From an uncultured Erysipelotrichaceae bacterium (lineage in GTDB: Bacteria > Bacillota_I > Bacilli_A > Erysipelotrichales > Erysipelotrichaceae), in contig CADBPK010000190.1 of the NCBI GenBank assembly GCA_902796465.1, positions 1 through 14,049 on the forward strand: a stretch of DNA of 14,049 nt, in the 5' to 3' direction. The notes beneath the pieces are model-generated. The model made no database searches and was not told the origin of the DNA. It saw only the letters and a list, made by a program, of their open reading frames with translations. Below are positions 1,346-9,237 of the stretch, one piece after another; position 1 is the stretch's first letter; each line of letters begins with the position of its first letter. Made by a program: the position numbers and the translations under genes.

Positions 1346-2266
1346 ATGCCATATTACCTCATTCATGAAAGACTGGATGAATGTGCCAGGGAAGAGATCC
1401 GTGGGGCGGATGCGCAGTTCGTTGCGATCCTGACACATGCGGAATATGCTGAAATCGAAGAACTCTTCGATATGAAGATCGATATCGAAATGGATCTGAG
1501 ACATATTCATGAAACAAAAGCCGTCGTGAATATCGATTCACTGACAGGCACATTCAATATTCCGGATCATGAGAATTATTCCGGACATAAATTCAAGATT
1601 GCCTTTGTGCTGGATGAAAAGGGCATCGTTTTCATTGATGACACTGACTATACACATATGATCATGGAACGGATCCGTGCCAGCAAAAAATGGAAGTTTC
1701 CTTCCCTTGAAAGACTGATCTATGATTTCCTTGAGGAAACAATACGGCATGACATTTCACTTCTGGAAAAAACGGAACAGGATCTGGATATCATGGAACG
1801 CTCGATCATGAAAGGCGAGATCGAACAGTATCCGATCCAGCTGAATGATATCCGCAGCGATCTGCTGGACATGCATATGCATTATGAGCATCTGCTGGAT
1901 GTCGCAAAGGAATTCGAAGAAAACGAGAATGACTTTTTTGACGAGAGGAATACACGCTACTTCCGCCTTTTCCAGGAAAGGGTCGCACGTCTGGAAGACA
2001 ATGTCGATAATCTCCGTGACCTGATCGTCCAGCTGCGTGATCTCGTTTCCGAACAGCTCAGCATCAAACAGAACAACATCATGACGCTTCTGACAGTCGT
2101 CACAACGATCTTTATGCCGCTGACGCTGATTGCCGGCTGGTACGGCATGAACTTTGTGAACATGCCGGAATTGTATATGGCATGGGGTTATCCGATCGTA
2201 ATCATCGTCAGTCTCATGATAGTGGTCGGATGTCTGGTCTTCTTTAAAAAGAAGAAATGGATGTGA
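1346..2266 (+). CDS. corA: CorA-family divalent cation (Mg2+/Co2+) channel
   Basis: A 306-residue protein with the CorA/MIT plan: a long cytoplasmic acidic and helical N-terminal domain, then two membrane helices at the extreme C terminus. The signature Y-G-M-N-F lies at the end of the first membrane helix (nucleotides near 2140-2156), and the second helix runs to a basic tail K-K-K-K-W-M. The region before the first helix is charged and alpha-helical, as in the family's stalk helix. I chose ATG 1346 rather than GTG 1337 because AGGTGA at 1335-1340 is well placed as ribosome site for 1346 and overlaps the GTG. The family forms homopentameric channels driven by membrane potential. Ion preference among Mg2+, Co2+, Ni2+ or Zn2+ cannot be decided here. 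Confidence 0.92.
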   Translation: MPYYLIHERLDECAREEIRGADAQFVAILTHAEYAEIEELFDMKIDIEMDLRHIHETKAVVNIDSLTGTFNIPDHENYSGHKFKIAFVLDEKGIVFIDDTDYTHMIMERIRASKKWKFPSLERLIYDFLEETIRHDISLLEKTEQDLDIMERSIMKGEIEQYPIQLNDIRSDLLDMHMHYEHLLDVAKEFEENENDFFDERNTRYFRLFQERVARLEDNVDNLRDLIVQLRDLVSEQLSIKQNNIMTLLTVVTTIFMPLTLIAGWYGMNFVNMPELYMAWGYPIVIIVSLMIVVGCLVFFKKKKWM

Positions 2267-2277
2267 GGATATATAAC

Positions 2278-3219
2278 ATGAAAAGAATTTTTCTTTCATT
2301 CCTGATGATTCTCTTTTTTCTGTGCGGCTGCCGGGCGGAAACGCAGACCGGAAACGAGGTCAATTCTGCCGGGCAGAGTTTTTCGTCTGCCGATATGGTC
2401 GCATTTAAATGCAGGTTTGTTTCGGAAGACAACTATACCGGGGAAGAGGGAATCGGTTCGGCAGAGTACTATTTTGAACTGAAAGTACTGGATGACGGCA
2501 GGATCGAAGGAAAAGCACAGAGAAACGCAAATGATGAAGATCCGTCCTATGACCTGGTTTTTGCGTCTGACAGGCAGACGCTTTCAGCTCTTCAGGAACT
2601 TACGGAAGAGATCGGGCTGAAGGATCTGGACGGCATCAGCCACATTGAAAACGGCGCACCGGAAGGGAAGGGAATATCGCTGAGAATACGCTACGCTTCC
2701 GCAAAGATCGTAAGCTGTGAAGACAATACGAAAAACCATCTTTCACTCAGGCAGATGCTGGCAGTGCGTGACTGGTTCGAGCAGGTATCCGGGGCAGGGC
2801 GTATCCGCCGCCATCCGGTGGAAGATATTTCACCTGAAACATTTGCGGAGGAGACCGGGCTGGATCCGGACCTCTCGTCTGTAACTGATAAGGACATTGT
2901 ATTTACCAGGATCCGGGAAAACCGTACGGTCATCTATAAAATATCATTTACGACGCATGAGGGAAATGCTTATGAACTGTATTTTTCGGCAGATACGGAT
3001 GACCTGTGCCCGGAGGATAACGGATGGGATACGGTATATCCTTTTGAAGATTTTACAGTCAGTCTGAATGGCAGTGGTCAGGGACTCTGTGAGTGGAAGA
3101 CAGACGCATATGCATATGCGCTGTATATGCCGGAAAATGCGGAAGAAGGTTATCTGGAATATATGCGGATCGCACTGAAAGGCATTCTCTGGAATTCTTC
3201 CGCCGGCAGCGGTTCATAA
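2278..3219 (+). CDS. Lipoprotein of unknown function
   Basis: A 313-residue protein. It starts M-K-R-I-F, then a hydrophobic stretch ending in L-C-G-C, a lipobox with the modified cysteine most likely at residue 18. It is therefore probably a diacylglyceryl-anchored surface lipoprotein. ATG 2278 is preferred over the in-frame ATG at 2257 because it has TGAGGA at 2264-2269 as ribosome site and gives a proper signal peptide. The mature part is acidic, with beta-rich text such as Y-Y-F-E-L-K-V-L-D-D-G-R-I-E-G-K and no internal membrane segment. I do not recognise a domain. It follows the cation channel by 11 bases and is probably co-transcribed with it. No clear terminator follows, but a new promoter starts 13 bases after the stop. 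Confidence 0.82.
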   Translation: MKRIFLSFLMILFFLCGCRAETQTGNEVNSAGQSFSSADMVAFKCRFVSEDNYTGEEGIGSAEYYFELKVLDDGRIEGKAQRNANDEDPSYDLVFASDRQTLSALQELTEEIGLKDLDGISHIENGAPEGKGISLRIRYASAKIVSCEDNTKNHLSLRQMLAVRDWFEQVSGAGRIRRHPVEDISPETFAEETGLDPDLSSVTDKDIVFTRIRENRTVIYKISFTTHEGNAYELYFSADTDDLCPEDNGWDTVYPFEDFTVSLNGSGQGLCEWKTDAYAYALYMPENAEEGYLEYMRIALKGILWNSSAGSGS

Positions 3220-3231
3220 CATATGCCAGGA

Positions 3232-3259
3232 TTGACAAATATATGGTTTGAATTATGAT
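3232..3259 (+). promoter_or_regulatory. Sigma-A type promoter for the ECF/SAM-hydrolase cluster
   Basis: TTGACA at 3232-3237 (6/6) and TATGAT at 3254-3259 (5/6), separated by 16 bases. A transcript would start near 3266 and have a leader of about 75 bases before the ATG at 3341. This is the strongest promoter in the first 8 kb and marks the likely start of the transport operon. Confidence 0.75.
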
Positions 3260-3265
3260 AATTTC

Positions 3266-3340
3266 GTATGGGAAAGCCGTCTTCCCGCTTCGTAATACAG
3301 GCAGAAGTACGGCATTGCATATCAATAAGGGGGTAGCAAA
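3266..3340 (+). promoter_or_regulatory. Structured 5' leader of the S-component gene, unassigned
   Basis: Two mutually exclusive hairpins can be drawn. The first pairs GGGAA 3270-3274 with TTCCC 3282-3286. It could sit inside a further pairing of GTAT 3266-3269 with ATAC 3295-3298. The second pairs GCCGTCTTC 3276-3284 with GAAGTACGGC 3304-3313, nine pairs with one bulged T. The ribosome site AAGGGGG is at 3327-3333. I could not match it to a riboswitch class from memory, including preQ1 and the SAM types, so it is only a candidate regulatory leader. Confidence 0.3.
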
Positions 3341-3901
3341 ATGAATTCACAGTCTTCAACCAAAACGATCGTAGCGACAGGCCTCGGTGCGGCAGTGTTT
3401 CTGGTTCTTTTCATGTATGTGAAAGTTCCTTCTCCGGTACCGGAAACCAATCTTCAGATTGCTTACGGTGTCTCCAGTTTTTTTGCGGCAGTATTCGGAC
3501 CTGTCGCCGGCTTCCTCGTAGCCTTTGTCGGGCATGCACTTTCTGACTTTATCCAGTACGGTTCCCCGTGGTGGAGCTGGGTCGTAGCTTCCGGTGTCGG
3601 AGCACTCATTACCGGTCTCTGTGCGAAGAAAGTCGCTCCAGCTGTTGAGGAGGGCAGATTCAATACATCAGAACTGATCACATTCGTGATCTGGGCAGTC
3701 ATCGCAAACGCTGTTGCCTGGCTGGTCGCAGCACCTGTTCTGGATATCGTTATGTATTCCGAACCGGCATCAACTTCTTTCCTGCAGGGTGTGACTGCAT
3801 TTGGTCTGGATTCCATCGTATCCTGTGTGATCGGTGCGATTCTGCTGAAAGCATACGCCTCCACAAAAACAGGAAAAGGCAGTCTTTCCAAAGATATCTG
3901 A
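3341..3901 (+). CDS. ECF transporter substrate-binding (S) component, UPF0397 family
   Basis: A 186-residue integral membrane protein. Its text closely follows the UPF0397 pattern: V-A-T-G-L-G-A-A-V-F near the start, then P-S-P-V-P-E-T-N-L-Q, F-G-P-V-A-G-F-L-V-A-F-V-G-H-A-L-S-D and Y-G-S-P-W-W-S-W-V-V-A-S. The N-terminal A-x-x-x-A-type small-residue helix is where S components contact EcfT. About five or six membrane helices can be seen, and there is no signal peptide. S components bind the vitamin or small molecule and dock on the ATPase/T module. Automatic pipelines often label this family a riboflavin transporter, but I see no basis for a substrate. The gene heads the cluster and is separated from the ATPase gene by a terminator-like hairpin. 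Confidence 0.9.
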   Translation: MNSQSSTKTIVATGLGAAVFLVLFMYVKVPSPVPETNLQIAYGVSSFFAAVFGPVAGFLVAFVGHALSDFIQYGSPWWSWVVASGVGALITGLCAKKVAPAVEEGRFNTSELITFVIWAVIANAVAWLVAAPVLDIVMYSEPASTSFLQGVTAFGLDSIVSCVIGAILLKAYASTKTGKGSLSKDI

Positions 3902-3917
3902 TAAACCAGTCATGAAC

Positions 3918-3954
3918 GGGAAAGCAATGTGAATGCTTTCCCTTGCTTTTTCTT
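3918..3954 (+). terminator. Intrinsic terminator or attenuator between S component and ATPase genes
   Basis: A perfect 9-base-pair inverted repeat, GGGAAAGCA at 3918-3926 and TGCTTTCCC at 3934-3942, has a 7-base loop and is followed by TTGCTTTTTCTT. The stop of the S gene is 15 bases upstream, and the ribosome site of the ATPase gene begins just after. I see no separate promoter for the ATPase gene, so partial termination would yield more S-component mRNA than ATPase/T mRNA. Confidence 0.7.
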
Positions 3955-3966
3955 GAAAGGAATTCT

Positions 3967-5676
3967 ATGAAAGAACCTATAATCACCTTCACTGATTTTT
4001 CTTTTCAGTATTTCGAACAGAGTGAGCCGACGCTGCATCATATCGATCTGACGATCCGGCGCGGCGAAAAAATACTGATTGCGGGACCTTCCGGTTCCGG
4101 AAAAAGTACGCTCGGAAACTGTATCAACGGCCTGATTCCCTTTGCGCATAAAGGGAAGATCACCGGATCTTTGAACGTGGACGGAATTGAAACGAAGAAA
4201 TCCAGTCTGTTTGAACTGTCCATGAAAGTCGGAACAGTGCTCCAGGACAGTGACGGGCAGTTTATCGGTCTGAGTGTCGGTGAGGACATTGCATTTGCCC
4301 TGGAAAATGATTTGGTTCCCCAGAAGGAAATGAAGGAAAGGGTAAAAAGGATTTCAGCTATCGTGGGAATGAGTGACCAGATCGGACAGAATCCCCATAA
4401 TCTGAGCGGCGGTCAGAAACAGCGTGTTTCCCTGGCCGGCGTAATGGTCGATGATGTCGATATCCTGCTGTTCGACGAACCGCTGGCTAACCTTGACCCG
4501 AAAACAGGGAAAGTCGCGATCGAACTCATTGATGATATCGCAAAGGAAGACAAGACAGTCATTATCATCGAGCATCGTCTTGAAGATGTTCTGCACAGAC
4601 CGGTTGACAGGATCATACTGATGAATGACGGGAAAATCGTGGCAGACGGTACACCGGATGAAGTGCTTGCGTCCGGTATTCTGAGAGATTACGGGATCCG
4701 GGAACCGCTTTACCTGACCGCTGCGAGGTATGCCGGAAGTGAGATCACAGCGGATCTGCATCCTGCATCCCTGGAAACATTTGATGTCTCCGGAATCAGA
4801 CATGATCTGCAGAAATGGTATGACGATCATTACAACCGCGTACCGCAGCCGCAGAAGAAAGAGATGCTGAAGATCGAAGATATCAGTTTTTCCTATTCCG
4901 GTGTCAAGCCGACACTGAATCATATCAGCGCAGTCATACATGAAGGGGAGATGGTCAGCATCGTCGGAAAGAACGGTGCCGGCAAGACAACGCTTTCCTC
5001 CGTGATCTGCGGGTTTATCAAGCCTGATGACGGAAAGATCACCATGTACGGAGAAGATCTTTCCCCGTATTCGATATCAGAAAGGGCGGAATATGTAGGC
5101 ATCGTCATGCAGAATCCGAACCAGATGATCTCCAAGACGATGATCTATGACGAAGTCGCCCTGGGACTGACGATCCGGAACCTGCCGGAGGAAGAGGTCA
5201 GACAGAAAGTATATGATGTTCTGAAGATCTGCGGTCTCTATGAATTCCGCAGCTGGCCGATCAGTGCGCTGAGTTTCGGACAGAAAAAGAGGGTAACCAT
5301 CGCTTCCATCCTTGTTCTGAATCCAAAGGTGCTGATACTGGATGAACCGACAGCCGGGCAGGATTATCATCATTATTCCGAGATCATGGAGTTTCTGAAA
5401 AAACTGAATGAGAACGGACAGACGATCATCCTGATCACCCATGACATGCATCTGATGCTTGAATATACGGAAAGGGCAATTGTTATTTCCGACGCAGAGA
5501 AGCTGGCTGACCAGAAAGCATTTGAAGTTCTCTGTGATCCGGTCCTGACGGAAAAGGCAAACCTGAAGGAAACGTCGCTGTTTGAACTGGCACAGAAGGC
5601 CGGGATCGAGGATCCTCTCGGATTTGTCGAGTGCTTTATCCATTATGACCGGGAGGTGCGTGCCCATGAAAATTAG
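3967..5676 (+). CDS. ECF transporter ATPase, two ABC domains fused (EcfA-EcfA')
   Basis: A 569-residue protein with two complete ABC nucleotide-binding domains. Domain 1: Walker A G-P-S-G-S-G-K-S at 40-47, Q-loop V-L-Q-D, signature L-S-G-G-Q at 146-150, Walker B with D170-E171, switch histidine H203. Domain 2: Walker A G-K-N-G-A-G-K-T at 334-341, Q-loop V-M-Q-N, signature L-S-F-G-Q at 435-439, Walker B with D459-E460, histidine H492. This is the YkoD/CbiO-like double ATPase of energy-coupling factor transporters. The L-S-F-G-Q variant also occurs in CbiO-type ATPases, so both sites look catalytically complete. ATG 3967 is chosen over TTG 3943 because AAAGG at 3956-3960 precedes it and 3943 lies at the terminator. 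Its end overlaps the EcfT start by 11 bases. Confidence 0.95.
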   Translation: MKEPIITFTDFSFQYFEQSEPTLHHIDLTIRRGEKILIAGPSGSGKSTLGNCINGLIPFAHKGKITGSLNVDGIETKKSSLFELSMKVGTVLQDSDGQFIGLSVGEDIAFALENDLVPQKEMKERVKRISAIVGMSDQIGQNPHNLSGGQKQRVSLAGVMVDDVDILLFDEPLANLDPKTGKVAIELIDDIAKEDKTVIIIEHRLEDVLHRPVDRIILMNDGKIVADGTPDEVLASGILRDYGIREPLYLTAARYAGSEITADLHPASLETFDVSGIRHDLQKWYDDHYNRVPQPQKKEMLKIEDISFSYSGVKPTLNHISAVIHEGEMVSIVGKNGAGKTTLSSVICGFIKPDDGKITMYGEDLSPYSISERAEYVGIVMQNPNQMISKTMIYDEVALGLTIRNLPEEEVRQKVYDVLKICGLYEFRSWPISALSFGQKKRVTIASILVLNPKVLILDEPTAGQDYHHYSEIMEFLKKLNENGQTIILITHDMHLMLEYTERAIVISDAEKLADQKAFEVLCDPVLTEKANLKETSLFELAQKAGIEDPLGFVECFIHYDREVRAHEN

Positions 5677-6499
5677 AACATTCTCATATGATCAGCTGGA
5701 TACATTTGTCCACCGGCTTTCGGGACTGTCAAAACTGGTATGTTTCCTGCTTCTGACAACCGCGATCATGCTGACATACGATATCCGGATCATACTGGCG
5801 ATCATGGTGCTGTCCTACATCATGATGATGATTTCGAAGATCAGGTATTCCCAGATCAAGGTCATGCTGATCTATGTATTCGCGTTCCTGGCGTTCAATT
5901 TTATACTTACATATGTTTTCGCTCCGGAATACGGCGTGAAGATCTACGGTACAAGGCATCAGCTGTTTTCGTTCGGCGGTCCCTATACGGTCACGCTGGA
6001 GCAGTTATTTTATCAGGTCACCAAGTTTTCCAAATATCTCTCTGTCATCCCGCTGGGTATTATTTTCATCCTGACGACCAATCCGAGCGAATTCGCATCT
6101 GCTCTGAACGGTGTCGGGATCAGCTACAAGATCTGTACGTCCCTGTCACTGACCTTAAGGTATTTTCCGGATGTGGCAGATGACTACAATTCGATATCGC
6201 TGGCCCAGCAGGCACGCGGACTGGAAATGAGCAAGAAGGCAAAAATGATGGATCGTCTGAAACGCATCGCGGGAATTCTGATACCGCTGATCATGACGAC
6301 GATGGACCGGATCGATATCATTTCCAATGCAATGGACCTGAGAGGATTCGGAAAACACAAGAAAAGAACGTGGTATGCTAAAAAGCCGCTGAAGAGGAAT
6401 GATTATATCTCCATGGCAGTGTGCCTGGCTGTCCTGATCATTTCCCTGTATATCCGCTTTGCCGTGAACCACAGTATTTATTACAACCCGTTTCAGTGA
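5666..6499 (+). CDS. ecfT: ECF transporter transmembrane component EcfT (CbiQ-like)
   Basis: A 277-residue polytopic membrane protein of the EcfT/CbiQ family. The hallmark coupling-helix motif A-R-G is at 183-185, in Q-Q-A-R-G-L-E. A second L-R-G-F-G motif is at 225-229. These two short motifs contact the ATPases in known ECF structures. Membrane helices occur around residues 23-60, 68-88 and 125-145, plus one at the C terminus after the cytoplasmic segment. The start ATG 5666 lies inside the end of the ATPase gene with GGGAGG at 5651-5656 as ribosome site. This gives translational coupling and presumably balanced A/T stoichiometry. With the S protein and the double ATPase it makes a complete, dedicated (group I-like) ECF importer. 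Confidence 0.93.
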   Translation: MKIRTFSYDQLDTFVHRLSGLSKLVCFLLLTTAIMLTYDIRIILAIMVLSYIMMMISKIRYSQIKVMLIYVFAFLAFNFILTYVFAPEYGVKIYGTRHQLFSFGGPYTVTLEQLFYQVTKFSKYLSVIPLGIIFILTTNPSEFASALNGVGISYKICTSLSLTLRYFPDVADDYNSISLAQQARGLEMSKKAKMMDRLKRIAGILIPLIMTTMDRIDIISNAMDLRGFGKHKKRTWYAKKPLKRNDYISMAVCLAVLIISLYIRFAVNHSIYYNPFQ

Positions 6500-6513
6500 G
6501 GAGGTATCCGCAT

Positions 6514-7374
6514 ATGAATGAGAACATACTTCCGATTCTGGTTTTCCAGACGGATTTCACATATCTTGAAGGGGCTGTCGCCGCCATGTACGGTGTGGTC
6601 AGAAGTGTTGACCGCAATGTCGAGATCATTACGGCCACACATGATCTGCCGCAGTATGATATATGGAGCGCTTCCTATCGTCTGCGCCAGTATATGCCGT
6701 TCTGGCCTGCCGGAACTGTATTTGTTTCCGTTGTGGATCCCGGTGTCGGAACAGCGCGCAAGGCCTGTGTGGCACGTACCGCAGACGGATATTATATTGT
6801 CACGCCGGACAACGGGACTTTGACACATGTCGCAGACCGGCATGGAATCGAAGAGGTCCGGGAAATCGATGAGACCGTCAACCGTCTCCCGTCCACCCGC
6901 GGTACCAGTGTCTTTCACGGCAGGGATCTGTTTGGCTATTGTGCCGCAAAACTGGCTTCCGGAAAGATTACATTTGAGGAAGTCGGTCCGGCATATTCAC
7001 CCGATGACATAGTGCGCCTGCCGGTGCATTCCTTTGAACGCAGGGAAAATGCAGCAGAGGGAATTATAGAGATCGATGATCCTAATTTCGGCAATATGTG
7101 GACCAATATCCCGGTTGAAGAACTGCATAAAGCAGGAATGTCCTTCGGGGATATGGTCATGGTCACGATCACAAAAGACGGAGAGGAGATTTTCCGCAAA
7201 CCGGTGCGCTTTGACCAGACATTCGGAAATGTTCAGAAGGGAGATGTGATCCTTTACAACAACGAACTCATGAACGCGGCGCTTGCTGTTTCACAGGGCA
7301 GTTTTAAGGACAGTTACTGTCCCAGATACGGACCGGAGTATCATATCTGCATTTCCCGGGAGGAGGCGGAATGA
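6514..7374 (+). CDS. DUF62-family SAM hydroxide adenosyltransferase (SAM hydrolase), copy 1
   Basis: A 286-residue soluble protein of the DUF62/SAM_adeno_trans family, the same fold as fluorinase and SalL. The hydrolase triad described for archaeal DUF62 proteins is present: D75 in V-V-D-P-G-V-G, R82 and H135 in F-H-G-R-D. The D-to-R spacing of seven fits the family. Halogenases lack the Asp/Arg, so hydrolysis to adenosine plus methionine is the expected reaction. The C-terminal domain carries D189-P-N-F-G-N194 and W-T-N-I, as in canonical members. The usual T-D-F-G-x-x-D at the N terminus is altered to T-D-F-T-Y-L-E. The ribosome site GAGGAGG lies just upstream, 14 bases after the ecfT stop. 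It is followed by a second copy with a 4-base overlap. Confidence 0.9.
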   Translation: MNENILPILVFQTDFTYLEGAVAAMYGVVRSVDRNVEIITATHDLPQYDIWSASYRLRQYMPFWPAGTVFVSVVDPGVGTARKACVARTADGYYIVTPDNGTLTHVADRHGIEEVREIDETVNRLPSTRGTSVFHGRDLFGYCAAKLASGKITFEEVGPAYSPDDIVRLPVHSFERRENAAEGIIEIDDPNFGNMWTNIPVEELHKAGMSFGDMVMVTITKDGEEIFRKPVRFDQTFGNVQKGDVILYNNELMNAALAVSQGSFKDSYCPRYGPEYHICISREEAE

Positions 7375-8222
7375 ACCGTCTGCTTGTATTCCAGACTGAT
7401 TTCGGGCTGTCCGACGGTGCTGTTGCGGCTATGTACGGCGTTGCCTTATCAGTGGATGAAGATCTGAAGATCTTCAATCTCACACACGATATACCGCCGT
7501 TTGATACCTTTGAAGCTTCCTACCGACTGTTTCAGGCAGTCCCTTACTGGCCGCAGAATACGGTTTTTGTTACCGTGGTTGATCCCGGTGTAGGCAGCTC
7601 CCGCCGCAGTATCGTTGCCAGGACAAAACTTGGCCAATATATTGTCACACCTGACAACGGTTCACTTTCCCATATCGCAAGAGCAGTCGGAATTGAATCC
7701 GCCCGTGTGATCAGGGAAGAAGTCGGACGCAGAAAGGACAGCGAAAACTCCTATACATTCCACGGCAGGGACATCTTTGCATATACCGGAGCGCTCCTTG
7801 CATCCGGAAAGATCACATATGATGACATCGGGGAAGAGATCGATCCTGAGGATCTGGTTATGATGAAGGGCATGTATCCTGTCATCAGTGAAACGAGCAT
7901 TCTCGGAACGATCGAAACACTGGATGTGCGCTTTGGTTCCTTATGGACCAATATCTCCCGTGAACAGTTTGAAAAACTGGGAATCCGTCCCGGCGAATCC
8001 GCTGATGTGGCGATCCTCTGCGGCAAAACGACAAGATTTCATTCCTTTGTACCGTTCAGTCACACATTTGCGGATGTGCAGATCGGGGAATATCTTCTCT
8101 ATGTGAATTCCATGGATTATATCGGCCTTGCGATCAATCAGGGTAATTTTGCAAAGGCATATAATATCGGTACGCGTGATCCGTGGCATATCCGCATCGA
8201 TAAGATCAGGACGCCGCTATGA
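7371..8222 (+). CDS. DUF62-family SAM hydroxide adenosyltransferase (SAM hydrolase), copy 2
   Basis: A 283-residue paralogue of the preceding protein, collinear throughout. Both share runs such as G-A-V-A-A-M-Y-G-V, T-P-D-N-G and A-S-G-K-I-T. The triad is D71, R78 and H131. It keeps the canonical T-D-F-G-L-S-D N-terminal loop. At the C-terminal pocket it reads D185-V-R-F-G-S190, so the family's usual Asn in F-G-N is Ser. The start overlaps the upstream stop (ATGA) with GGGAGGAGG upstream; the stop overlaps the next gene. The two proteins differ too much to be a recent duplication. DUF62 proteins are generally homotrimers with ligand at subunit interfaces, so mixed trimers are conceivable. The expected reaction is SAM plus water to adenosine plus methionine. 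Confidence 0.9.
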   Translation: MNRLLVFQTDFGLSDGAVAAMYGVALSVDEDLKIFNLTHDIPPFDTFEASYRLFQAVPYWPQNTVFVTVVDPGVGSSRRSIVARTKLGQYIVTPDNGSLSHIARAVGIESARVIREEVGRRKDSENSYTFHGRDIFAYTGALLASGKITYDDIGEEIDPEDLVMMKGMYPVISETSILGTIETLDVRFGSLWTNISREQFEKLGIRPGESADVAILCGKTTRFHSFVPFSHTFADVQIGEYLLYVNSMDYIGLAINQGNFAKAYNIGTRDPWHIRIDKIRTPL

Positions 8223-8485
8223 ATTATCTGATCCTGGTATGGGCTGTGCTGAATCTGATCAGTTTTGCTGCATTCGGACTGGATAAACTGTATGCGGTCA
8301 AAGGTCACTGGAGAATTCCCGAACTGCATCTCATTGCCTTGTCAGCGGCAGGCATACTCGGCGGTCTGCTGGGTATGGTAATGTTCCGCCACAAGATACG
8401 CAAACCGAAATTCACCATCGGTCTTCCCGTCATCGCCATGCTGGAGGTATTCCTGACAGCGCTGGTGACAGGAAGAATGTACTGA
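8219..8485 (+). CDS. Small membrane protein, DUF1294 family
   Basis: An 88-residue protein with three hydrophobic helices, near residues 1-20, 37-56 and 66-84. The DUF1294 pattern is clear: F-G-L-D-K-L-Y-A, then W-R-I-P-E-L-H-L, then G-G-L-L-G, then F-R-H-K-I-R-K-P-K-F. Its function is unknown; the conserved charged residues sit on the loops between helices. In other bacteria this domain can be fused to a cold-shock domain, which is absent here. The start overlaps the stop of the second SAM-hydrolase copy as ATGA, so it is probably translated with the cluster. Whether it belongs functionally to the transport unit is not shown. Confidence 0.85.
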   Translation: MNYLILVWAVLNLISFAAFGLDKLYAVKGHWRIPELHLIALSAAGILGGLLGMVMFRHKIRKPKFTIGLPVIAMLEVFLTALVTGRMY

Positions 8486-8503: not shown

Positions 8504-8905
8504 ATGACAAACATTGAAAGAGTATGCACATTTTTAAAAGAAGCAGGTACGTATTACCTGGCAACAGCTGACAAGGATCAGCCCCGTGTCAGACCGTTCG
8601 GAACAGCACATATCTTTGAAGACAAACTGTATATCCAGACAGGTCTTTCCAAAGACGTCGCAAAGCAGATGGCTGAGAATCCCAAAGTTGAGATCTGCGC
8701 TTTCAAAGATGGAGTATGGGTCAGAGTAGAAGCAGAAGCGGTCCTGGATGAAAGGATCGAAGCACAGGAATCCATGCTTGATGATTACCAGTCACTCAGA
8801 AGGATGTATACGCCCGGTGACGGAAACACGGCTGTCTACTGGCTGAAGAATGCCAAAGCAACATTCTCATCATTTACAGCAGCACCCGAGACCGTTACAT
8901 TCTGA
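8504..8905 (+). CDS. Pyridoxamine 5'-phosphate oxidase-like FMN-binding split-barrel protein
   Basis: A 133-residue protein of the PNPOx-like split beta-barrel type. The start T-Y-Y-L-A-T-A-D-K-D-Q-P-R-V-R-P-F-G is typical, followed by L-Y-I-Q-T-G and a K-D-V-A-K-Q-M-A-E-N-P-K-V-E-I segment. The family binds FMN or related flavins as a dimer, and many members have no known substrate. It is shorter than genuine PdxH (about 200-230 residues), so it is unlikely to be the B6 biosynthetic enzyme. The ribosome site AAGGAGG is at 8493-8499. It begins 18 bases after the DUF1294 gene with no promoter visible between, so it may be the last gene of that transcript. I see no GC-rich terminator after it. 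Confidence 0.87.
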   Translation: MTNIERVCTFLKEAGTYYLATADKDQPRVRPFGTAHIFEDKLYIQTGLSKDVAKQMAENPKVEICAFKDGVWVRVEAEAVLDERIEAQESMLDDYQSLRRMYTPGDGNTAVYWLKNAKATFSSFTAAPETVTF

Positions 8906-8981: not shown

Positions 8982-8989
8982 ACTGGTAA

Positions 8990-9237
8990 ATGCAGTGAAG
9001 GGAAAAAGTAGGCAGACTGCGGTGGATAAAGAGAGCTTCATCCGGTGAAAAGAAGCCGATCCGTCCTGTTGAAACACATCCCGGAGCAGCGTTTCCGAAC
9101 CACTCAGTAGGAAACGACGCACGTACCCGTTACCGTACAGAAGTATGTTTGTACTTCATGAGGCTGTGTCCGTGAGGGCATGGCGAATTTGGGTGGAATC
9201 ACGTTATGAAAGACGTCCCTTGGCGGGGCGTTTTTTT
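8990..9237 (+). promoter_or_regulatory. T-box riboswitch, histidine specifier, controlling the his operon
   Basis: Stem I has GAAGGGAAAAAGTA at 8997-9010, with the AGTA partner of the loop-E motif at 9007-9010. It continues with AGAGAGC and a GCTTC/GAAGC hairpin, GAA at 9071-9073, then CAC at 9075-9077 followed by A, and CCCGGAGC closing the stem. CAC is a His codon and is the likely specifier; the overlapping CAT at 9077-9079 is also His. Further hairpins pair 9090-9096 with 9110-9116, and 9140-9145 with 9152-9157. The T-box GGGTGGAATCACG is at 9191-9203. The antiterminator pairs GGG 9191-9193 with CCC 9217-9219 and ACG 9201-9203 with CGT 9214-9216. It competes with the terminator at 9213-9231. 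Uncharged tRNA-His should favour read-through into hisZ. Confidence 0.92.
9213..9237 (+). terminator. T-box intrinsic terminator
   Basis: ACGTCCC at 9213-9219 pairs with GGGGCGT at 9225-9231 (one G-U pair) around a 5-base loop and is followed by a run of seven T from 9231. Its 5' arm contains the CGT and CCC that the antiterminator needs, so the two structures exclude each other. Confidence 0.9.

What the first reader, a model, noticed from the sequence alone, without database searches (positions are those of the whole stretch)
3232..8485. Dedicated ECF importer co-operonic with two SAM-hydrolase paralogues
One promoter precedes UPF0397 S protein, double ECF ATPase, EcfT, two DUF62 enzymes and DUF1294, with overlaps or gaps of at most 14 bases from the ATPase gene to the DUF1294 gene. 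The gene order and motifs are seen directly. From family knowledge, ECF importers bring in vitamins or small molecules, and DUF62 proteins hydrolyse SAM to adenosine and methionine. The inference is a salvage unit that imports an adenosyl-, nucleoside- or methionine-related compound and processes it. The alternative is that the enzymes lower SAM to favour uptake or to regulate it. The substrate of this S family is not settled, so this context is a real clue.
Basis: partly seen in the sequence, partly recalled or inferred. Interest (0 to 1): 0.78.

Follow-up and report, generated by a model that had tools for sequence, protein, structure and literature searches.

The report
Likely SAM importer with two hydrolases
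A set of bacterial genes that probably pulls the cofactor S-adenosylmethionine (or a close relative) into the cell and splits it into methionine and adenosine, which would explain both an orphan transporter family and an orphan enzyme family; nothing has been tested at the bench yet.

Summary
In detail: S component (PF07155), fused EcfAA', EcfT and two SAM-hydrolase (DUF62) genes lie in a tight same-strand run. DUF1294 is only a local neighbour. A terminator-like hairpin sits between S and EcfA.

The link recurs. DUF62 lies within 10 kb of strong S genes at 43 of 51 loci (145 genomes, same family), 41 of 51 (148 genomes, order of Enterococcus innesii), 14 of 29 (391 genomes, class of a Clostridium; 2 more cut by contig ends) and 63 of 78 named loci, Anaerolineae included. 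Six T-boxes ahead of S or DUF62-S genes all read AUG (methionine). One locus has a guanine-type purine riboswitch; others have metQ/N/I, metK or a nucleoside phosphorylase beside them. Both DUF62 clades keep the hydrolase triad but differ in the substrate pocket. Two one-contig reduced genomes (one a phytoplasma) keep S-A-T and SAM-dependent methyltransferases; no metK or DUF62 was found in them.

Best reading: import of SAM (or a close adenosyl-sulfonium) and hydrolysis to methionine plus adenosine. Methionine regulation of this family is already in annotation; no paper seen in the held library proposes SAM as cargo. Substrate binding is untested.

The parts
3232..3259 (+). promoter-like site ahead of the S gene
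   Evidence: TTGACA-16-TATGAT, 11 of 12; consensus match only
3341..3901 (+). S component (UPF0397/PF07155; MtsA-type)
   Evidence: PF07155 1.4e-46; NF010182 204.9 bits, cut-off 99; AF2 model pLDDT 92.5, nearest solved folds are ECF S components
3918..3942 (+). terminator-like hairpin between S and EcfA (probable partial terminator)
   Evidence: a hairpin at the same place in 26 of 86 distinct related S-A neighbours, 0.3 expected from shuffles
3967..5676 (+). fused double ECF ATPase (EcfAA')
   Evidence: two ABC_tran stretches plus DUF3744
5666..6499 (+). EcfT transmembrane protein
   Evidence: PF02361 7.8e-28
6514..7374 (+). DUF62 paralogue D1 (SAM hydrolase family)
   Evidence: PF01887 5.4e-47, PF20257 1.2e-14; D1 clade, hydrolase triad kept, Glu usual at the FlA S269 and D21 positions
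7371..8222 (+). DUF62 paralogue D2 (SAM hydrolase family)
   Evidence: PF01887 3.2e-50, PF20257 2.8e-21; D2 clade, hydrolase triad kept, Asp15/Ser247 kept

Best explanation
This is a dedicated ECF-type importer for S-adenosylmethionine (SAM) or a very close adenosyl-sulfonium, coupled to its own hydrolases. S binds the compound outside; the EcfAA'-T module powers its release inside; D1 and D2 break the 5'-carbon-sulfur bond with water to give methionine and adenosine, which feed the methionine and purine pools. Shown here: gene content, linkage, regulators in relatives, conserved active-site residues, and no detectable metK in two S-bearing genomes. Inferred: the substrate, the reaction, the direction, and the division of labour between D1 and D2.
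For: Linkage in samples drawn without regard to the link: 43 of 51 strong S loci in 145 genomes of the same family, 41 of 51 in 148 genomes of the order of Enterococcus innesii, 38 of the DUF62 hits upstream on the same strand, 14 of 29 in 391 genomes of the class of a Clostridium; and 63 of 78 named loci, found by similarity to the window S. Six T-boxes upstream of DUF62-S or of an S-bearing met operon, all with an AUG specifier: L099, L161, L216, L219, L226, L228. Guanine-type purine riboswitch just upstream of S in G005. Neighbours: metQ-metN-metI-hydrolase-S (L161), metN-metI-DUF62-S (L197-L199), nucleoside phosphorylase next to EcfA (L198), metK directly upstream of S (L007). S. pneumoniae spd-0431/0432/0434 rise without methionine and spd-0431 is CmhR-activated (PMC5359408, passages); that these are DUF62, S and ATPase I infer from Trk-gene synteny in L178 (gene names read by eye) and recalled names. 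His-Arg-Asp triad of SAM hydrolases (PMC10491745, passages) kept: D 89/89 and 58/58, R 88/89 and 58/58, H 85/89 and 57/58 in D2 and D1. Two one-contig reduced genomes keep S-A-T, TrmD and RsmG (KsgA checked in one) but show no metK and no DUF62 (motif scan of one).
Against: No binding, transport or enzyme data. The window itself has no Rfam match ahead of S, and the window's own genome was not tested for metK or methionine synthesis. 16 of 20 upstream regions scanned in the Enterococcus order have no T-box, and one of the four positives had been picked because a motif was already seen there, so 3 of 19 is the fairer count; no other T-box was seen at S in the scans of 9, 20 and 9 loci apart from L099. 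13 of 29 Clostridium-class S loci and 10 of 24 S genomes in the window's class sample lack DUF62. The S proteins of the two reduced genomes are divergent (22 and 24 of 40 invariant positions) and may carry something else; those genomes also have a second ECF A/T set and other ABC genes. Solo DUF62 genes exist without S (13 of 56 in the Enterococcus-order sample). NCBIfam names the S family a riboflavin transporter.
Confidence: 0.57

Rival explanations
1. The importer carries a different methionine-linked compound (methionine itself, a precursor, S-methylmethionine, methylthioadenosine), and DUF62 recycles the cell's own SAM to methionine during methionine starvation.
For: Met T-boxes and met-operon neighbours fit any methionine source; some S loci lack DUF62 and some DUF62 lack S; the existing annotation says only 'methionine-regulated'.
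Against: Very tight pairing of S with DUF62 rather than with methionine enzymes; destroying SAM that cost ATP to make is wasteful; D2's relative in E. coli carries an export signal-like N-terminus, so at least one relative may act outside the cell; guanine-type riboswitch on one operon.
Confidence: 0.22
2. SAM epimer clean-up: DUF62 removes damaged (R,S)-SAM, and the importer is co-regulated for another reason.
For: StDUF62 hydrolyses only (R,S)-SAM (PMC12120602 abstract and passages; PMC10491745 passages).
Against: D1 and D2 score far below the NCBIfam (R)-SAM hydrolase cut-offs (120-145 against 350; 91-116 against 470); repair does not explain a dedicated importer or methionine control.
Confidence: 0.08
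3. The S protein imports riboflavin, as its database name says, and the DUF62 link is incidental.
For: NF010182 'ECF-type riboflavin transporter' above cut-off; only sequence match in PDB (E up to 1) is RibU at 6e-5; TmRibU is among the top fold matches.
Against: No FMN riboswitch among the Rfam matches of the loci scanned; methionine T-boxes instead; the RibU stretch shares 9 of the 40 positions invariant in the 29 aligned S proteins, the last ten of which it does not reach; biotin and folate S components match the model as well as RibU does.
Confidence: 0.06

Closest known systems
MtsABC / MtsTUV, 'methionine-regulated ECF transporter' (name style recalled as SEED)
   Same: S. suis SSUSC84_0348 is named MtsA (PMC9423846, passages); same S family by recall, dedicated A and T, methionine control
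   Different: Cargo unassigned there; the DUF62 partners and the SAM reading are added here. That Rodionov et al. 2009 proposed methionine or precursors is recalled, not read
RibU-type ECF riboflavin transporters
   Same: Pfam PF07155 and S-component fold
   Different: 9 of 40 conserved positions shared, last ten not compared; no FMN riboswitch found; dedicated fused ATPase
DUF62 SAM hydrolases (SaDUF62, StDUF62, PH0463)
   Same: Both Pfam domains and the His-Arg-Asp triad
   Different: Below (R)-SAM hydrolase model cut-offs; Trp192 and (D2) Asp15 as in SalL rather than as in TM0089; two diverged paralogues in one operon
SAM-dependent halogenases (SalL, fluorinase)
   Same: Fold family; several residues of D2 resemble SalL
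   Different: Halogenases lack the hydrolase triad (PMC10491745); D1 and D2 keep it
SAM transporters of intracellular bacteria (EamA/DMT type; recalled)
   Same: Proposed cargo
   Different: Unrelated protein family and energy source

Membership tests
ECF transporter, dedicated module (group I) | S component, two ATPase domains and EcfT together | tested here: met
   T overlaps A by 11 bases
ECF transporter, dedicated module (group I) | S-component fold | tested here: met
   AF2 pLDDT 92.5, pTM 0.87; Foldseek ranks 1-26 are titled as ECF transporters or S components or as the S proteins RibU, FolT or ThiT, except 4huq, titled only 'a transporter'; best E 2.2e-4, 4 hits at E 0.001 or better
ECF transporter, dedicated module (group I) | High-affinity binding of the cargo by S | not testable with these tools
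   -
MtsABC methionine-regulated ECF | Methionine-responsive regulation in relatives | tested here: met
   6 T-boxes, all AUG; none in the window itself
RibU riboflavin transporter | NCBIfam NF010182 score above cut-off | tested here: met
   204.9 against 99 bits; a name, not an assay
RibU riboflavin transporter | FMN riboswitch on the operon | tested here: not met
   no RF00050 among the matches
RibU riboflavin transporter | RibU ligand-site residues | tested here: inconclusive
   9 of 40 positions shared with the 3p5n stretch, last ten not covered; ligand residues of RibU not looked up
DUF62 SAM hydrolase | PF01887 + PF20257 and His-Arg-Asp triad | tested here: met
   triad from PMC10491745
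DUF62 SAM hydrolase | Hydrolysis of SAM to adenosine and methionine | not testable with these tools
   -
(R)-SAM hydrolase equivalogs NF058624 / NF053629 | curated cut-offs | tested here: not met
   120.4 and 144.9 against 350; 91.5 and 116.4 against 470

The most novel reading that the evidence does not exclude
The UPF0397 ECF family is the first known ABC-type SAM importer. With D1/D2 it treats outside SAM as food (methionine plus purine), the two paralogues covering the two sulfonium epimers that form spontaneously; without DUF62, as in phytoplasmas where no metK was found, it supplies the cofactor itself.
Probability: 0.3. Interest if true: 0.82.

Novelty: new variant of a known kind. Interest (0 to 1): 0.63.

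Why it matters
It would settle the cargo of an orphan ECF S family that databases call a riboflavin transporter, give DUF62 enzymes a physiological role that a 2025 paper calls still unknown for at least some of them (PMC12120602, passages), and show that gut and rumen bacteria scavenge extracellular SAM. It also gives a testable answer to how reduced bacteria without metK obtain SAM.

Tried and rejected
Rejected: DUF1294 and the PNPOx gene as parts of the unit (no hit in 78 related loci). Rejected: halogenase activity for D1/D2, because the hydrolase triad is kept. Rejected: T-box control of the window operon itself; the only T-box (8986-9223) precedes the his genes. A first hairpin count (28 of 88) was replaced by 26 of 86 after dropping L051 (4.2 kb gap) and the duplicate L056. 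An S-component fold search does not tell the cargo. Ten paper searches showed, in the listings and in the passages I opened, no paper that proposes SAM as cargo of this family; the library lacks most subscription papers.

Uncertain: the S. pneumoniae assignment (synteny and recall); the guanine type of the G005 riboswitch and the T-box specifier positions (read by eye with recalled rules); D15 = FlA D21 (recalled motif) and S247 = FlA S269 (offset of the end coordinates; FlA residue list from a PMC3999930 figure legend). metK absence rests on tblastn in both genomes, phmmer in G376, with three MetK queries, plus recalled motifs on G376 only. Dropped before counts: 7 sequences outside the two main DUF62 clades were left out of the residue counts, and DUF62 frames under 240 residues and identical copies out of the tree. 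Of 51 Enterococcus-order S loci 40 were fetched, and 20 of those had their upstream region scanned. Samples overlap: the class sample contains family genomes, and some Clostridium-class loci are also among the 78 named ones.
Full report
1. What is there. Seven genes on the + strand were checked. S component 3341-3901 (PF07155, NF010182), fused EcfAA' 3967-5676, EcfT 5666-6499, DUF62 D1 6514-7374 and D2 7371-8222 form the core; DUF1294 (8219-8485) and a PNPOx-like gene (8504-8905) follow. D1 and D2 are the only DUF62 matches in the genome. A terminator-like hairpin (3918-3942) lies between S and EcfA. Among 86 distinct related loci where EcfA is the next gene (gap up to 400), 48 have a gap over 40 bases and 26 of these hold a hairpin with T tract; shuffled gaps give 0.3 on average, at most 1. 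In the loci L026-L058, L070 and L101 (mostly Erysipelotrichaceae) it is 22 of 25, in the Enterococcus-order loci 2 of 13. It probably makes S in excess over its module; this is inference.

2. Is the link real? Four samples, partly overlapping. (a) 145 genomes of the same family: strong S (over the curated cut-off) in 50 genomes (51 loci), DUF62 in 51, both in 48; 43 of 51 S loci have DUF62 within 10 kb and 90 of 108 DUF62 hits are near a strong S. Of the 8 unlinked S loci, two look like contig breaks (G061: a piece starting with A-T-M20-D1-D2; G092: a piece starting with A-T-D1), G004 has no DUF62 match but its contig ends inside the next gene after T, G096 has none, G135 has its module elsewhere, and G137, G049 and G093 have DUF62 on other contigs. 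(b) 346 genomes of the window's class: 24 with strong S, 14 of them with DUF62; 10 S-only; 4 DUF62-only. (c) 148 genomes of the order of Enterococcus innesii: 51 S loci, 41 linked, with 38 DUF62 hits upstream and 5 downstream, all on the S strand; 13 of 56 DUF62 hits alone. (d) 391 genomes of the class of a Clostridium: 29 strong S loci; from the fetched stretches and two earlier loci 14 linked, 2 cut by a contig end, 13 without DUF62. Among 78 named loci found by similarity to the window S, 63 have DUF62 on the same strand within 10 kb; 6 of the 15 others end within about 1.3 kb after S. Titles include Erysipelotrichaceae, Lachnospiraceae, Clostridium, Fusibacter, Anaerolineae, Enterococcus and Actinomycetaceae. 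Gene order varies (S-A-T-D1-D2; D2-A-T-D1-S; D2-S-A-T; S-A-T-D1), so the association is not one inherited block. In S. aureus the two products also have consecutive locus tags (KQ76_RS13825/13830; PMC13210130, passages). The Fisher p-values (3.6e-32, 1.7e-15, 1.4e-16) ignore relatedness.

3. Regulators. T-box leaders: Enterococcus L099, 105 bits, just before DUF62; 4 of 20 Enterococcus-order regions upstream of DUF62-S (L216, L219, L226, L228; 94-107 bits), of which L228 had been picked because one search showed a motif there, so 3 of 19 otherwise; and L161, where T-box-metQ-metN-metI-hydrolase-S run on one strand in G135, whose A-T-D1-D2 lie on another contig. Read against the model, all six have AUG at the specifier, i.e. 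methionine. In G005 a purine riboswitch (63.1 bits) lies about 54 bases ahead of the S match; its C in GACUA reads as guanine type by the recalled rule. Of 61 purine riboswitch matches in 54 genomes it is the only one beside S. Elsewhere nothing was found at S: among 18 longer loci only L099 had an element there, among 20 short ones, three of them paralogue loci, only L119. The window has none before S. A GntR-UTRA gene lies upstream of S in L057, L069, L071, L072, L075 and L077 (Pfam on L069).

4. Neighbours (names partly read by eye). metN-metI-Trep_Strep-DUF62-S in L197-L199, and a PNP_UDP_1 phosphorylase directly before EcfA in L198 (Pfam on L198); a uridine-kinase-family gene before EcfA in L181, whose genome has no DUF62; metK about 80 bases upstream of S in L007; a PNP_UDP_1 gene reading as MTAN near S in L205 and L206, which lack DUF62 (Pfam on L206); mmuM and an amino-acid permease near an IS1216-flanked DUF62-S-A-T stretch of an E. 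faecium conjugative plasmid; metF and metH facing away from a solo DUF62, one gene between, in L156. M20-type genes follow EcfT, or lie between D1 and D2 (L150), in several loci with a divergent S (Pfam on L147), and a GNAT gene lies between D1 and D2 in L057, L069, L072, L075 and L077 (Pfam on L069). Much of this is methionine- or purine-flavoured, which is what SAM hydrolysis yields. The neighbours of DUF62-less S loci in sample (d) show no such theme, and many Enterococcus-order loci have unrelated neighbours.

5. The enzymes. D1 and D2 are sister clades: 58 D1 sequences plus 7 relatives (support 0.95) and 89 D2 sequences (0.89). Window D2 numbering: Asp71, Arg78 and His131 of the hydrolase triad are kept in both. 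D2 has Asp15 in 88/88 and Ser247 in 88/88; D1 (the 7 relatives left out) has Glu at 15 in 50/58 and at 247 in 54/57. PMC3999930 (figure legend) lists D21 and S269 of fluorinase among residues for SAM and fluoride binding; S247 maps to S269 by offset, D15 to D21 by recalled motif. So D1 keeps the chemistry but has a changed pocket, by recall on the amino-acid side. This could mean the other epimer or another sulfonium; commercial and in-house SAM can be up to half (R,S) (PMC12120602). Both score far below the (R)-SAM hydrolase models. An E. coli homologue (45% identical to D2) begins with a signal-peptide-like stretch in the copy read, and its DNA is found in 2374 of 5426 E. coli genomes, hinting that D2-type enzymes meet an outside substrate.

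6. The S protein. In 29 aligned S proteins (window included) 40 positions are invariant, among them P30, T36, H65, D69, W77, W78, W80, D135, Y139, E141 and Q149; acids and tryptophans suit a cationic ligand (inference). The RibU stretch shares 9 of the 40 and does not reach the last ten. AF2 gives pLDDT 92.5; S components for biotin (E 2.2e-4), riboflavin (6.6e-4), folate (8.3e-4), pantothenate (2.6e-3) and thiamin (5.7e-3) match in similar measure.

7. A test by absence. In the class sample, five genomes of one genus of 0.7-0.9 Mb have S but no DUF62. I fetched two of them whole. tblastn with three MetK proteins finds nothing credible (best E 2.8 and 0.96), while TrmD and RsmG queries hit at 1e-35 to 1e-75; KsgA and RsmD-type genes were confirmed in G376 by Pfam. 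The L041 and L042 MetK queries find that of L007 at about 1e-154. Such cells should need outside SAM. Their S is divergent (22 and 24 of 40), a second ECF A/T set is present, and other importers cannot be ruled out, so this is suggestive. The five other S-only genomes of the class sample (g82) were not fetched whole; two of their S proteins keep 36 of 40. In two phytoplasma genome papers my terms found cobalt and methionine transporters and no occurrence of S-adenosylmethionine or metK (PMC2459194, PMC6148798; find passages).

8. What is known. S. suis annotation names an S protein MtsA of a methionine-regulated ECF transporter (PMC9423846). In S. pneumoniae spd-0431, 0432 and 0434 rise in methionine-free medium and spd-0431 is CmhR-activated (PMC5359408, passages); I assign them to DUF62-S-A by synteny with L178 and recall. 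New here, as far as the searches reach: the size and spread of the DUF62 link, the two-clade split, the guanine-riboswitch and metK clues, and the SAM reading.

Noticed in passing
window 8986-9223 (+): T-box leader (109 bits) ahead of a histidine-biosynthesis gene run (names read by eye); unrelated to the ECF operon.
   Followed up: no
window 2257-3219 (+): Predicted lipoprotein upstream of S with no Pfam or NCBIfam match.
   Followed up: no
L136 6929-7831; DNA in 2374 of 5426 E. coli genomes: E. coli DUF62 with a signal-peptide-like N-terminus between yigE and uvrD: a possible exported SAM hydrolase.
   Followed up: partly
L256-L291 and L292-L329 (G376, G370): Two one-contig reduced genomes (G376 matched to a phytoplasma) with no detectable metK but with SAM-dependent methyltransferases.
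   Followed up: yes
L138 (E. faecium plasmid NZ_CP064407): DUF62-S-A-T on a conjugative plasmid between IS1216 copies, near mmuM and an amino-acid permease.
   Followed up: no
G115:C2:16650-20998: Array of six DUF62 matches in a row, one weak (38.6 bits) and one in a short open frame.
   Followed up: no
L043, L044, L045, L101: An additional, diverged D1-like DUF62 copy in these loci.
   Followed up: partly
L099 7085-7900: DUF62 reading frame of Enterococcus innesii lacks the usual C-terminal part: frameshift or sequencing error; not mended.
   Followed up: no
L055/L056 and G085:C106: The operon appears twice in inverted orientation on one contig, perhaps an assembly artefact.
   Followed up: no
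L147, L162, L249, L250, L251, L253, L254, L255: M20-family peptidase-like gene right after EcfT in loci with a divergent S; role unexplained.
   Followed up: partly
L143-L146, L149: Solo D2-type DUF62 directly upstream of an ffh-like gene in these genomes, with a thiI-like gene before it (gene names read by eye).
   Followed up: no
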